Assembly (NCBI GenBank): GCA_020438905.1
Contig: JAGQTQ010000045.1
Coordinates: forward strand, 1 to 36,072
Length of the DNA stretch: 36,072 nucleotides
From: Mycobacterium sp.
GTDB lineage: Bacteria > Actinomycetota > Actinomycetes > Mycobacteriales > Mycobacteriaceae
Direction: 5' to 3'
How positions within the stretch are numbered: the first letter of the stretch is position 1; each line of letters opens with the position of its first letter. Of this stretch, positions 54-2,598 are shown in pieces. The notes under the pieces were generated by a model. That model saw only the letters and a list, made by a program, of their open reading frames with translations. It was not told the DNA's origin and did not search any database. The translations under genes and the position numbers were made by a program.

Positions 54-179
54 TCAGCGCTGGGTGTTGCAGGTGCACTGCTGGCCGGCGGGCACGTTGC
101 GCATCACCTGTTCGGCGTGTTCGCCGCAGCCGCCCCAGGTGGTCTTGCTGCAACGGGGGCAGGTGGCCGGGTAGCACAT
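54..179 (-). CDS. 41-residue Cys-rich protein, probable metal or thiol binder
   Basis: This small gene has a strong ribosome binding site (GAAGGAGA on the minus strand, 186-193) seven bases before its ATG and ends in TGA at 54-56. The product is 41 residues with six cysteines. They fall in an N-terminal CxxxxCPRC segment, a TWGGCGEH segment, and a C-terminal CTC pair three residues before NTQR. I recognise the general pattern (CPxC, TWxGCG, VMxxVP) from small uncharacterised proteins in actinobacteria, but I know no function. It starts 43 bases after the thioredoxin stop on the same strand, so the two are probably cotranscribed under the CstR-like operators. I infer, without direct evidence, that it binds zinc or reacts with sulfane sulfur. 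Confidence 0.8.
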   Translation of the reverse strand: MCYPATCPRCSKTTWGGCGEHAEQVMRNVPAGQQCTCNTQR

Positions 180-222
180 GGTGGGTCTCCTTCGTGGGGG
201 TTGTGTTGTGTAGTGGGGTTGA

Positions 223-597
223 TCAGGCTTGTGAAGGCGCGGTCTGGGCCGCGATGCTCGCCCGGACCTCGTCCATGTCGAGGTCCTTGATCTTGGTGAT
301 CAGTTCCTCCAGTGCCGCGGCCGGCAGCGCGCCGGGCTGGGCGAAGAGCAACACGCCCTCGCGAAACGCCATGACCGTCGGGATCGAGCGGATCTGCAGA
401 GCGCCGGCCAGTTCCTGCTCGGCCTCGGTGTTGACCTTGGCATGCACCACATCGGGATGCTTCTGGGAGGAGCTTTCGAAGACCGGGGCGAAGGAGCGGC
501 AGGGCCCGCACCAGGAAGCCCAGAAATCGACGAGGACGATGGGACTCTCGGTGACCGTCGACTCGAAGTCGGTCGCGGTGAGCTCAACGGTGGCCAT
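223..597 (-). CDS. Thioredoxin
   Basis: A 124-residue single-domain thioredoxin, a cytoplasmic disulfide reductase. The active site WCGPC lies at residues 29-33, preceded by the usual VDFWASWC strand, and the cis-proline loop is IPT. About 15 extra residues follow the fold (DEVRASIAAQ and on). I chose the ATG at 597 because a GAAAGGA ribosome binding site lies just upstream (604-610) and the fold begins there; an in-frame start at 645 would put the start inside the operator region. A minus-strand -10 (TATTGT, 634-639) overlaps the edge of operator 1. It is divergent from the rhodanese gene and followed by the Cys-rich small gene. Its likely role here is reducing protein persulfides and polysulfides, which is an inference from the neighbours. 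Confidence 0.92.
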   Translation of the reverse strand: MATVELTATDFESTVTESPIVLVDFWASWCGPCRSFAPVFESSSQKHPDVVHAKVNTEAEQELAGALQIRSIPTVMAFREGVLLFAQPGALPAAALEELITKIKDLDMDEVRASIAAQTAPSQA

Positions 598-636
598 GCG
601 TGGTCCTTTCGGTTCGGTAGACCTTCCCCTCGTACA

Positions 637-652
637 ATACCCCACAGGGTAT
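637..652. promoter_or_regulatory. CstR/CsoR-type operator 1 (thioredoxin side)
   Basis: ATACCC-CACA-GGGTAT, a perfect 6+4+6 palindrome. On the minus strand its final TAT forms the start of a TATTGT -10 hexamer (634-639), giving a predicted thioredoxin transcript start near 627. Bound repressor would cover the -10. The G/C-tract-in-A/T-flank design is what CsoR/CstR/RcnR-family tetramers bind. Confidence 0.75.
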
Positions 653-672
653 ATCTATTCCCGGGGCTTCTC

Positions 673-688
673 ATACCCCCCGCGGTAT
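673..688. promoter_or_regulatory. CstR/CsoR-type operator 2 (central)
   Basis: ATACCC-CCCG-CGGTAT, matching operator 1 with one mismatched arm position. It starts 36 bp after operator 1 and 35 bp before operator 3. On the plus strand its final TAT begins TATGCT (686-691), a good mycobacterial -10 (TANNNT) for the rhodanese gene. Confidence 0.7.
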
Positions 689-707
689 GCTTAAGATGGT
701 GTAGGGC

Positions 708-723
708 ATACCCCGCAGGGTAT
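708..723. promoter_or_regulatory. CstR/CsoR-type operator 3 (rhodanese side)
   Basis: ATACCC-CGCA-GGGTAT, a perfect palindrome 38 bp before the rhodanese ATG. It lies either downstream of the TATGCT promoter as a roadblock or over a second, weaker -10 (TATCTA, 721-726). Confidence 0.75.
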
Positions 724-760
724 CTACTGCAAGTAGCCATTCCACGGAGGAGATATACGC

Positions 761-1354
761 ATGAAGACACCTGCCGTCCTCGGCGCCGCCGAACTGCGCG
801 GACTGATGGAATCGGGAAACTCGCCCCGTGTCCTGGACGTCCGGACCCCGGGAGAGTTCGAGACCGCCCACATCTCCGGGGCCTACAACGTGCCACTTGA
901 TCTGCTCCGCGAGCACCGCGACGAAATCCGTGCCCACCTCGACGAGCAGGTGGTGCTGGTCTGCCGTTCCGGTCAGCGCGCCGCGCAGGCCGAGCAGAGC
1001 CTGCGCGAGGCGGGCCTGGACAACGTGCACATTCTGGACGGCGGTATGAACGCCTGGGGGGAGGCCGGTTTCGCCGTCAACCGGGGAACCCAGCGCTGGG
1101 ATCTGGAACGTCAGGTCCGGTTCGTGGCCGGGATGATCGTCGCACTGTCGGTGCTGATCGGCGCCTTTGTTCCCGGGGTCCAATGGGTCGCGTTCGTGAT
1201 GGGCGCGGGGCTTGCCGTCGCGGCGGTCACCAACACCTGCCTGATGGGGATGATGCTGGCGAAGCTGCCCTACAACCGCAGTGCCGCCTGCGACGCGCAG
1301 ACCGTGGTGGCCCAACTCGTCGGCTCGCGGCCGGTCAACACCGGTCGGGAGTGA
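761..1354 (+). CDS. Rhodanese-DUF2892 membrane sulfurtransferase
   Basis: A 197-residue protein that moves sulfane sulfur between thiols. The rhodanese domain spans about residues 5-105, with the active-site loop CRSGQR beginning at Cys68 and the conserved VLDVRTPGEF and AHISGAYNVP segments. From about residue 115 follows a DUF2892 (YgaP-like) hairpin of two hydrophobic segments with NTCLMGMMLAKLPYN, so the enzyme is tethered to the membrane. The ATG at 761 has a GGAGGAG ribosome binding site (746-752). Its gene is first in a rightward pair with the TauE/SafE gene, whose start is 7 bases past this stop. Operators 1-3 upstream put it under the CstR-like repressor. Related rhodanese-exporter pairs belong to sulfide and persulfide detoxification operons. 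Confidence 0.92.
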   Translation: MKTPAVLGAAELRGLMESGNSPRVLDVRTPGEFETAHISGAYNVPLDLLREHRDEIRAHLDEQVVLVCRSGQRAAQAEQSLREAGLDNVHILDGGMNAWGEAGFAVNRGTQRWDLERQVRFVAGMIVALSVLIGAFVPGVQWVAFVMGAGLAVAAVTNTCLMGMMLAKLPYNRSAACDAQTVVAQLVGSRPVNTGRE

Positions 1355-1361
1355 GGCGGCC

Positions 1362-2264
1362 ATGGTCACCCTCACCGTAGTCCTGGCTCTGCTGGTCGGC
1401 GTCTCGCTGGGGTTGCTCGGCGGTGGCGGATCGATTCTCACCGTTCCACTGCTGGCCTATGTGGCCGGAATGGACGCCAAGCAGGCGATCGCGACCTCCT
1501 TGCTCGTCGTCGGGACCACCAGCGCGGTGGCGGCGGTCTCGCATGCGCGAGCGGGCCATGTGCAATGGCGCACGGGCCTGATCTTCGGTGTTGCGGGCAT
1601 GGCCGGCGCTTACGCGGGCGGGGTGTTGGCCCACTTCATTCCGGGAAGCGTTCTACTCCTCGCCTTCGCCGTCATGATGATCGCGACCGCGATCGCCATG
1701 CTGCGCGGACGCAAGCAGGTTTCCGCGGGGGCCGACAACGGCGCACCGCACGACATGCCGGTGGTCAAGGTCATCATCGAGGGGTTGGTGGTTGGTCTGG
1801 TCACCGGAATGGTCGGCGCGGGTGGCGGTTTCCTGGTGGTTCCGGCGCTGGCGCTGCTCGGCGGATTGCCGATGCCGGTCGCGGTCGGCACCTCGCTGGT
1901 GGTCATCGCGATGAAGTCCTTTGCCGGCTTGGCCGGTCATCTGAGCAGTGTGACGATCGACTGGAAACTCGCCGCGATGGTGACCGCTTCGGCGGTGGTC
2001 GGCGCACTGGTCGGCGCGAGGTTGACGGCGTTGGTGAACCCGGACAGCCTGCGGCAGGCGTTCGGCTGGTTCGTTCTGATCATGTCCTCGGTGATTCTCG
2101 GCCAGGAAATCCATCCCGTGGTCGGGTTCGCCGCGGCCGCGACAATCCTGGCCGCGGCGATCGTCTATACCCTCTGCGGCCGCTGGGAGCGGTGCCCGTT
2201 GCGCGGCGCCAAGCCGCCGGTGGCGACGGGGGTCGCGGCAGGGGGACCGCGCGATACCCCCTAG
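1362..2264 (+). CDS. TauE/SafE-family sulfite/sulfonate exporter
   Basis: A 300-residue integral membrane protein of the TauE/SafE (DUF81) family, whose members export sulfite, thiosulfate or organosulfonates. Two homologous halves are visible. Each starts with a glycine-rich re-entrant motif ([13 protein letters not shown] near residue 18, [13 protein letters not shown] near residue 150), with about eight hydrophobic segments in total. The C-terminal tail contains a Cys pair (LCGRWERC). The ATG at 1362 is preceded by a purine-rich GGGAGTGAGG; translation is probably coupled to the rhodanese gene. The last 11 bases of the gene (from 2254) are also part of operator 4 for the repressor gene. 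The likely job here is removing sulfite or thiosulfate made by the sulfurtransferase; the substrate is inferred. Confidence 0.9.
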
Positions 2265-2269
2265 GGTAA
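2254..2269. promoter_or_regulatory. CstR/CsoR-type operator 4 with embedded -10 (autoregulation)
   Basis: ATACCC-CCTA-GGGTAA, one mismatch from the palindrome of operators 1 and 3. The exporter's TAG stop (2262-2264) lies inside it. The final TAA starts TAAGCT (2267-2272), a TANNNT -10 giving a predicted start near 2279, about 20 bases before the repressor ATG. The repressor would therefore control its own promoter. Confidence 0.75.
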
Positions 2270-2298
2270 GCTGGGGTTCTGATCCCAAGGAGGCCCAG

Positions 2299-2598
2299 AT
2301 GGCTGGTGGCGGCGCAGTTCACGACGGCGCAGTTCAGCAGAACAGGGACGCCACCGACGTCCTCAACCGGCTGCGTCGCGCCCAGGGCCAGCTGGCCGGG
2401 GTGATCGCGATGATCGAGAACGGCCGGGAGTGCAAGGACGTGGTCACCCAACTCGCCGCGGTCTCGCGGGCGCTTGACCGGGCCGGCTTCAAGATCGTCG
2501 CCACCGGACTTCGCCAGTGCGTGCTCGGTGAGAGTTCCGGGGACAAGACCCCGTTGACCGAGGCCGAACTGGAAAAGCTCTTCCTGTCGCTGGCCTGA
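2299..2598 (+). CDS. CsoR/CstR-family (DUF156) repressor, probable persulfide sensor
   Basis: A 99-residue all-helical regulator of the metal-sensitive repressor family, which binds DNA as a tetramer through a surface patch rather than a helix-turn-helix. The core [29 protein letters not shown] (helices 1-2; Cys45) and the GLRQCVLG segment (Cys74) carry the two conserved cysteines, 29 residues apart as in CsoR and CstR. Copper sensors have a His four residues before the second Cys; here that position (70) is Gly, so the Cu(I) site is incomplete. Two cysteines without the His is the CstR pattern, in which persulfides crosslink the cysteines. The ATG has an AAGGAGG ribosome binding site (2287-2293). 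Four matching operators flank the sulfur genes, including its own promoter. I infer that it derepresses the module on exposure to sulfide or polysulfide. Confidence 0.9.

What the first reader, a model, noticed from the sequence alone, without database searches (positions are those of the whole stretch)
54..2598. Self-contained sulfane-sulfur response module: thioredoxin, 41-aa Cys protein, rhodanese-DUF2892, TauE/SafE, CstR-like repressor
All five genes have a plausible sulfur role, and four copies of one operator tie them together. Known cst operons in firmicutes pair CstR with TauE, rhodanese-like proteins and sulfide:quinone reductase. Here a thioredoxin and a tiny Cys-rich protein take part, and no SQR or persulfide dioxygenase gene is present in the window. 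This gene set beside cyp136 is not something I recall from M. tuberculosis, so it may be an acquired mycobacterial variant.
Basis: partly seen in the sequence, partly recalled or inferred. Interest (0 to 1): 0.75.

Follow-up and report, generated by a model that had tools for sequence, protein, structure and literature searches.

The report
Sulfur-stress genes under one repressor
These five genes are one arm of a genome-wide response to reactive sulfur that a CstR-like repressor appears to control, a mycobacterial variant of a circuit already described in Streptomyces, and they include a tiny, unnamed, cysteine-rich protein that recurs in this response across many actinobacteria.

Summary
All five genes are at the stated coordinates, with three exact copies of ATACCN6GGTAT between trx and rhodanese and a fourth, one base off, before the regulator. 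The regulator is CsoR-family with Cys45/Cys74 and Gly where copper CsoRs have His. Gene set, cysteine spacing and operator match the sulfane-sulfur sensor ScCsoR of Streptomyces coelicolor (PMC7533328), so a sulfur-response reading is well supported, though not shown by experiment. "Self-contained" is wrong. The genome holds only eight exact operators (reversed control 0), all at sulfur/thiol genes, including a second CstR-like gene with a PDO-rhodanese and a sulfide:quinone reductase. "Acquired" is not supported. The new element is the 41-aa protein. It has no convincing Pfam, NCBIfam, PHROG or PDB match, occurs in 84 of 121 genomes of the family, keeps five Cys and one His, and swaps a sixth Cys for Gly-His, as metal sites do. 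Loci found by this protein alone carry the exact operator in 32 of 56 cases, reversed control 0 of 56. This is a new variant of a known kind, with an uncharacterised conserved regulon member.

The parts
54..179 (-). 41-aa Cys-rich protein (called CYS41 here): M-C-x4-C-x2-C-x-K-x2-W-x-G-C-G-x-H-x13-C-x-C; proposed metal-thiolate mini-protein of the sulfur regulon
   Evidence: Conserved family, 84 of 121 genomes; conserved Cys/His; operator association 32 of 56 loci; no convincing family or structure match
223..597 (-). thioredoxin (WCGPC), head of the left arm; proposed persulfide/polysulfide reductase
   Evidence: TIGR01068 above cut-off, PF00085; thioredoxin and CYS41 both present in 9 of 80 related loci
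637..652 (.). operator 1, ATACCCCACAGGGTAT
673..688 (.). operator 2, ATACCCCCCGCGGTAT, 36 bp from operator 1 (start to start)
   Evidence: spacings 32-36, 53-57 and 89-90 bp dominate in relatives
708..723 (.). operator 3, ATACCCCGCAGGGTAT, 35 bp from operator 2
761..1354 (+). membrane rhodanese: rhodanese domain (CRSGQR loop) plus YgaP-like TM domain
   Evidence: PF00581, PF11127; exact operator within 300 bp upstream in 22 of 29 orthologue loci
1362..2264 (+). TauE/SafE-type exporter, proposed sulfite export
   Evidence: PF01925 E=3.4e-53
2254..2269 (.). operator 4, ATACCCCCTAGGGTAA (one base off), overlapping the TauE stop codon, about 30 bp before the regulator; proposed autoregulation
2299..2598 (+). 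CstR-like repressor of the CsoR family; Cys45 and Cys74, Gly70 at the copper-ligand His position
   Evidence: PF02583; best PDB match 7mq1/7mq2 (entry title says CsoR), 7MQ2 named CstR in PMC9774590; residue signature

Best explanation
The segment is one arm of a dispersed, CstR-type sulfane-sulfur regulon. Without reactive sulfur the CstR-like repressor sits on the tandem ATACCN6GGTAT operators and represses both divergent transcripts and its own gene. When persulfides or polysulfides rise, Cys45, helped by Cys74, is persulfidated and the repressor leaves the DNA. The membrane rhodanese then moves sulfane sulfur, TauE exports sulfite, thioredoxin reduces persulfides back to thiol and H2S, and CYS41, probably a small metal-thiolate protein, buffers or carries thiol-bound sulfur or metal released by the stress. 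The oxidising steps (SQR making persulfide, PDO-rhodanese making sulfite) and a peroxiredoxin come from other loci behind the same operator. Shown here: gene families, regulator residue signature, operators and their genome-wide restriction to sulfur loci, recurrence in other genomes. Inferred: inducer, direction of regulation, and every enzymatic role. The CYS41 role is the weakest step.
For: Families. Closest solved regulator is called CstR in PMC9774590. The copper-ligand His is absent in the window regulator, its genome paralogue, 80 regulator motifs in 79 of 80 related loci (all Gly), and 36 Pfam-found regulators from 27 other genomes of the family (32 Gly, 2 Ser, 1 Asn, 1 Ile), against His in 30 of 30 copper-type paralogues. 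Exactly 8 exact operators in the genome, reversed control 0, all at sulfur/thiol genes. In 32 genomes the tight operator lies within 7 kb of 25 of 38 CstR-like and 0 of 33 copper-type regulators. 17 of 19 operator-found loci carry a query homologue, 15 of 19 if regulator-only loci are left out. SQR matches SQOR structures at E=1e-95 and PDO-rhodanese matches 3tp9/3r2u. ScCsoR of S. coelicolor has Cys37/Cys66 (same spacing of 29), the operator ATACCn6GGTAT, PDO, rhodanese and sulfite-transporter genes, and is released from DNA by polysulfide (PMC7533328).
Against: No expression or binding data for this organism. 12 of 36 CstR-like loci have no exact operator and 12 of 36 no sulfur query within 4 kb (two of the 36 stretches overlap). 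In CYS41-found loci 24 of 56 have no exact operator in about 3.1 kb. 7 of 29 rhodanese loci have no exact operator within 300 bp upstream. 5 of 28 genomes with a CstR-like regulator lack CYS41. Two of 19 operator-found loci carry none of the queries (by eye, a DUF302-like gene and an MMPL-like transporter). The depositors of the closest structure named it a copper-sensing CsoR. The two regulator paralogues cannot be assigned to particular operators.
Confidence: 0.85

Rival explanations
1. The regulator is a copper sensor (CsoR/RicR-like) and the Cys-rich 41-aa protein is a metallothionein.
For: The regulator belongs to PF02583; the closest PDB entries are titled copper-sensing CsoR; the operator resembles those of a copper CsoR and RicR according to PMC7533328; a review passage says an H2S donor also induces the CsoR and RicR copper regulons in M. 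tuberculosis (PMC7711268).
Against: The copper-ligand His is replaced by Gly. RicR model NF052430 is far below cut-off (40.9 vs 175 bits). Copper-type paralogues are a separate group with 0 of 33 near the operator and 0 of 30 loci with a sulfur query. The neighbours are sulfur genes.
Confidence: 0.05
2. A general thiol-oxidant or electrophile response (disulfide stress, hypochlorite, formaldehyde-like FrmR logic) rather than a sulfane-sulfur response.
For: Thioredoxin and a 1-Cys peroxiredoxin are in the regulon. Papers on AGXX and HOSCN stress in S. aureus that mention CstR appeared in a search listing (not read).
Against: Rhodanese, TauE, PDO and SQR point to sulfane-sulfur and sulfide chemistry. 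ScCsoR with the same cysteine spacing responds to polysulfide. FrmR model NF008464 is far below cut-off (27.9 vs 133 bits).
Confidence: 0.08
3. The thioredoxin-CYS41 arm is a bystander: it lies across the operators by chance and is not part of the response.
For: In relatives the gene divergent from the rhodanese is usually PDO (29 of 41 rhodanese genes examined); TRX in 3 and CYS41 in 1.
Against: TRX and CYS41 follow PDO or PDO-SQR on one strand in L015, L051 and L075. CYS41 found by its own sequence has the exact operator in 32 of 56 loci. The second CYS41 of this genome has its own exact operator 75 bp upstream.
Confidence: 0.04

Closest known systems
ScCsoR gene circuit of Streptomyces coelicolor (ScCsoR, PDO-rhodanese, rhodanese, TauE; PMC7533328)
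   Same: CsoR-like regulator with two cysteines 29 apart, operator ATACCn6GGTAT, rhodanese and TauE-type exporter, autoregulation. Streptomyces-type loci found here have PDO, membrane rhodanese, TauE and regulator with the operator, regulators 71-82% identical.
   Different: Here thioredoxin and CYS41 occupy the divergent arm; PDO and SQR lie elsewhere with a second regulator; CYS41 was not found in these Streptomyces-type loci; the passages read describe no thioredoxin or CYS41 in that circuit.
Staphylococcus aureus CstR / cst operon
   Same: Same regulator superfamily, paired Cys, sulfurtransferase/TauE/PDO/SQR logic; PDO-rhodanese matches structure 3r2u (that 3r2u is the S. aureus protein is recalled).
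   Different: The S. aureus cst genes lie together with cstR (PMC9774590 passage; operon layout recalled). Here the genes are scattered over several loci under one operator.
Bacillus licheniformis YrkD cluster (PMC9918477)
   Same: CstR-like YrkD controls a rhodanese, a TauE-like YrkJ, PDO and also a hypothetical thioredoxin (YdfQ): a precedent for thioredoxin in such a cluster (passages).
   Different: Eleven genes in one cluster with NreBC; no CYS41 counterpart in the passages seen.
M. tuberculosis CsoR / RicR copper repressors
   Same: PF02583 fold family and a similar G/C-tract palindrome (passage).
   Different: Copper-ligand His absent; NF052430 far below cut-off.

Membership tests
CsoR superfamily (PF02583) | PF02583 domain above gathering score | tested here: met
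   81.4 bits vs 22.8
CstR / ScCsoR type persulfide sensor | two conserved Cys with the copper-ligand His replaced | tested here: met
   Cys45, Cys74, Gly70; same 29-residue spacing as ScCsoR Cys37/Cys66
CstR / ScCsoR type persulfide sensor | operator ATACCn6GGTAT before regulated genes and own gene | tested here: met
   three exact sites plus one with a single mismatch before the regulator gene
CstR / ScCsoR type persulfide sensor | persulfidation releases it from DNA | not testable with these tools
   needs EMSA and mass spectrometry
cst-type gene set | sulfurtransferase, TauE, PDO and SQR genes behind one operator | tested here: met
   met for the genome, not for the window alone: the window has no SQR or PDO; both are on contig C95 behind two exact operators
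copper CsoR / RicR | Cys-His-Cys copper ligands | tested here: not met
   His replaced by Gly, whereas 30 of 30 copper-type paralogues have His
copper RicR (NF052430) | curated score cut-off | tested here: not met
   40.9 bits vs 175
Thioredoxin (TIGR01068) | curated score cut-off and WCGPC motif | tested here: met
   102.2 bits vs 96.8; WCGPC in the translation
YnfU-type zinc-binding mini-protein (NF038384), considered for CYS41 | curated score cut-off | tested here: not met
   12.1 bits vs 36
Zinc-binding mini-protein (general), considered for CYS41 | invariant metal-ligand pattern that allows Cys/His exchange | tested here: inconclusive
   C35-x-C37 in 71 sequences, C-x-G followed by His in 14, one did not fit and one was too short to judge, of 87 collected; metal binding itself not testable here

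The most novel reading that the evidence does not exclude
CYS41 founds a new, previously unnamed family of metal-thiolate mini-proteins dedicated to sulfane-sulfur stress: a persulfide buffer or carrier, or a zinc-release sensor, that works with thioredoxin and PDO and is a core member of the CstR-type regulon across Actinomycetota.
Probability: 0.35. Interest if true: 0.68.

Novelty: new variant of a known kind. Interest (0 to 1): 0.5.

Why it matters
One short DNA word found only 8 times in the genome marks a scattered sulfur-stress response. That predicts a regulon (two CstR-like genes, SQR, PDO-rhodanese, membrane and lipoprotein-like rhodaneses, TauE, thioredoxin, 1-Cys peroxiredoxin, two CYS41) and gives an unannotated 41-aa family its first testable function. 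Mycobacteria and their relatives meet sulfide in soil and in hosts (general knowledge). In the listings of my searches of a held library of open papers, and in the passages I read, I found no account of a CstR-type regulon in mycobacteria; that library lacks most subscription papers, so this is weak evidence of absence.

Tried and rejected
Copper-regulon reading: rejected on residue signature, model scores and the control set of copper-type paralogues.

Self-contained module without SQR/PDO: rejected after the genome-wide operator search. My first pattern used N5 instead of N4 between the half-sites and missed all the real sites (it found one other place, and its control also one); it was replaced. 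One search allows 2 mismatches and is noisy: 53 matches against 15 for the reversed control.

Recent acquisition: G+C is ordinary and relatives are widespread. CYS41 is also found on actinobacterial plasmids (75 of 72,556 plasmid records), so plasmid carriage of CYS41 happens, but nothing shows it for this locus.

Phage origin of CYS41: two IMG/VR contigs and one unannotated 'Bacteriophage sp.' record carry it. L229 has an exact operator about 65 bp upstream, L230 none, L231 one about 2.2 kb away. Not pursued; could be host DNA.

Sequence searches gave only insignificant matches; in Pfam 1 of 28 members matched DUF7575 at E=0.0098 and 1 of 28 SCRL at E=0.027, which I take as chance.

Sigma-70 promoter scan of 560-800 found none; uninformative for mycobacteria. 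The same scan lists one weak terminator-like site at 592-605, overlapping the trx start codon; not interpreted.

The 56 CYS41 loci and 29 rhodanese loci are those the tools issued (best matches first), not all matches. The 19 operator-found loci are one per genome. Two of the 36 stretches overlap (L245, L246). Copper-type control loci are about 3.2 kb, whereas CstR-like loci are up to 8.2 kb; at equal 1.5-kb flanks the figures are 17 of 36 with a sulfur gene and 13 of 36 with an operator, against 0 of 30. One search's zero expectation comes from 20 first-order Markov simulations. Of the 87 CYS41 sequences collected 86 are distinct, and they include the window's own.
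Full report
WHAT IS THERE. Pfam and NCBIfam agree with the names, except that the 41-aa protein, called CYS41 here, matches nothing above a cut-off. Three exact copies of ATACCN6GGTAT lie between trx and rhodanese at 637, 673 and 708, spaced 36 and 35 bp. A fourth, with one changed end base, lies at 2254-2269 across the TauE stop codon, about 30 bp before the regulator. The window itself holds no SQR or PDO homologue beyond the rhodanese domain of the known gene.

THE REGULATOR IS CstR-LIKE, NOT COPPER-TYPE. 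Its best solved relatives are 7mq1/7mq2/7mq3, which the entry titles call copper-sensing CsoR; 7MQ2 is named CstR in a figure legend of PMC9774590 (passages). It has Cys45 and Cys74, but Gly where copper CsoRs have His. All 80 regulator motifs read in 79 of the 80 related loci L009-L088 have Gly and Cys (L036 gave no motif hit). 30 of 30 copper-type paralogues from the family survey have His and Cys. Of 36 lower-scoring PF02583 regulators taken by Pfam from 27 other genomes of the same family, none has His: 32 Gly, 2 Ser, 1 Asn, 1 Ile.

THE OPERATOR MARKS SULFUR GENES GENOME-WIDE. The genome held for the window (3.69 Mb, 189 contigs, 84.9% complete) has exactly 8 exact ATACCN6GGTAT sites and 0 of the reversed control. 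Beside the three in the window they are: two on C95 before a second CstR-like gene, an MBL-rhodanese fusion and a flavoprotein; one on C147 before a 1-Cys peroxiredoxin and a rhodanese; one on C32 at the start of a rhodanese that by eye has a lipoprotein-like signal; one on C67, 75 bp before a second CYS41. The flavoprotein matches mitochondrial-type sulfide:quinone oxidoreductase structures at E=1e-95. The fusion matches the MBL-rhodanese structures 3tp9 and 3r2u. Two sites with one mismatch lie beside a second MBL-rhodanese protein (C61) and a second 1-Cys peroxiredoxin (C131); this looser pattern is less clean.

INDEPENDENT TESTS IN OTHER GENOMES. (a) Found by operator: of 19 loci, one for each of the 19 genomes with the tight operator (own genome included), 17 hold a homologue of a query within about 3 kb, 15 if loci with only the regulator are left out; the other two hold, by eye, a DUF302-like gene and an MMPL-like transporter. 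Over the 32 genomes searched the tight operator occurs 68 times and its reversed control once (table). (b) Found by CYS41: 32 of 56 loci hold the exact operator, 0 of 56 the reversed control, and 20 Markov simulations gave none. In the phylum-wide set 9 of 29 have it within 250 bp upstream of CYS41, four of them overlapping the start codon. (c) Found by the membrane rhodanese in the genus: 36 of 98 genomes (own included); of 29 other loci issued, 22 have the exact operator within 300 bp upstream. (d) Found by peroxiredoxin at E below 1e-40: 3 of 61 genomes (own included); both outside loci have the exact operator within 80 bp upstream. (e) Negative control: the tight operator lies within 7 kb of 25 of 38 CstR-like and 0 of 33 copper-type regulators; at equal 1.5-kb flanks 17 of 36 CstR-like loci against 0 of 30 copper-type loci have a sulfur gene. 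(f) By genome, CYS41 occurs in 23 of 28 genomes with a CstR-like regulator and 0 of 4 without (tabulated by me; Fisher p=0.0035).

HOW THE WINDOW ARRANGEMENT COMPARES. All five genes stand together in 4 of 80 related loci (L011, L015, L017, L051), four of the five in 3 more. In most relatives PDO, not thioredoxin, is divergent from the rhodanese: PDO 29, thioredoxin 3, CYS41 1, another rhodanese 1, none or contig edge 7, of 41 rhodanese genes in 109 loci. In L051 (Mycobacterium barrassiae) the divergent arm runs PDO, SQR, thioredoxin, CYS41, peroxiredoxin. The simplest reading, an inference, is that in the window lineage PDO and SQR moved to, or were replaced by, the C95 locus, leaving thioredoxin and CYS41 next to the operators.

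CYS41. The family occurs in 84 of 121 genomes of the family and 36 of 296 of the phylum (own genome included). Among 79 aligned sequences (of 87 collected; 8 left out for length or start) C2, C7, C10, G17, C18 and G19 are invariant, C35 is present in 78 with one gap, and H21 is present in 78 of 79. C37 is Cys in 71 sequences and Gly followed by His in 14, a Cys-to-His exchange that points to a metal site. Many longer members carry a C-terminal tail of the type FFxxLFGR, absent in the window copy (28 of 87 by a loose pattern). No convincing match exists in Pfam, NCBIfam, PHROGs or the PDB; a literature search for its sequence words found nothing relevant. Its function is open; persulfide or metal buffering next to thioredoxin is my guess.

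MECHANISM AND PRECEDENT. The nearest studied system is ScCsoR of S. coelicolor (PMC7533328; passages and section 10 read): CsoR-like repressor, operator ATACCn6GGTAT, PDO, rhodanese and sulfite transporter, self-regulation; Cys37 is persulfidated, and C37S and C66S still bind DNA but no longer respond. The window regulator has the same cysteine spacing and operator. Thioredoxin in such clusters has a precedent in the YrkD cluster of B. licheniformis (PMC9918477, passages), and thioredoxins reduce sulfane sulfur to H2S in S. coelicolor, there under AdpA (PMC9952706, passages). Peroxiredoxin reducing S8 is mentioned in PMC9774590 (passage). Other papers seen as passages only: PMC10318464, PMC9405070, PMC8557817, PMC7711268.

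VERDICT. Observation confirmed; sulfane-sulfur reading well supported but not shown by experiment; self-contained and acquired not supported. Kind: known (CstR/ScCsoR). Variant features: scattered regulon with two regulators, thioredoxin arm, CYS41. The organism is treated as mycobacterial because many of the best named relatives are Mycobacterium records; it is not named by the tools.

Noticed in passing
G000 contig C131:54336-55115 (L008) and C147:15742-16530 (L005): Two 87% identical 1-Cys peroxiredoxins, each behind an operator (one exact, one with a single mismatch); at E below 1e-40 relatives in only 2 of 60 other family genomes, both with the exact operator.
   Followed up: partly
L102, L103, L106, L107 (CYS41 start) and L004:3320-3336: The operator's last bases (GGTATG) overlap the gene's ATG, which suggests leaderless transcripts repressed by covering the transcription start.
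   Followed up: no
L009-L088 and L200-L228: Tandem operators have preferred spacings: 32-36 bp (26 pairs), 53-57 bp (17) and 89-90 bp (13) among neighbouring pairs closer than 150 bp.
   Followed up: no
L229 (IMG/VR contig end), L230 and L231 (unannotated 'Bacteriophage sp.' record): CYS41 homologues on contigs filed as viral; L229 has the exact operator about 65 bp upstream. They may be host DNA.
   Followed up: partly
L158 around 1501: In one genome the exact operator lies before a gene that looks DUF302-like by eye, a possible further regulon member.
   Followed up: no
window 5970-8895: NrdH (TIGR02194, 114.8 vs 85.75 bits) and a class Ib ribonucleotide reductase NrdE (TIGR04170) lie a few kb downstream; no exact operator there.
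   Followed up: no
window 2611-4095 (-): A P450-type protein beside the module, below every NCBIfam cut-off; the name cyp136 was not confirmed.
   Followed up: partly
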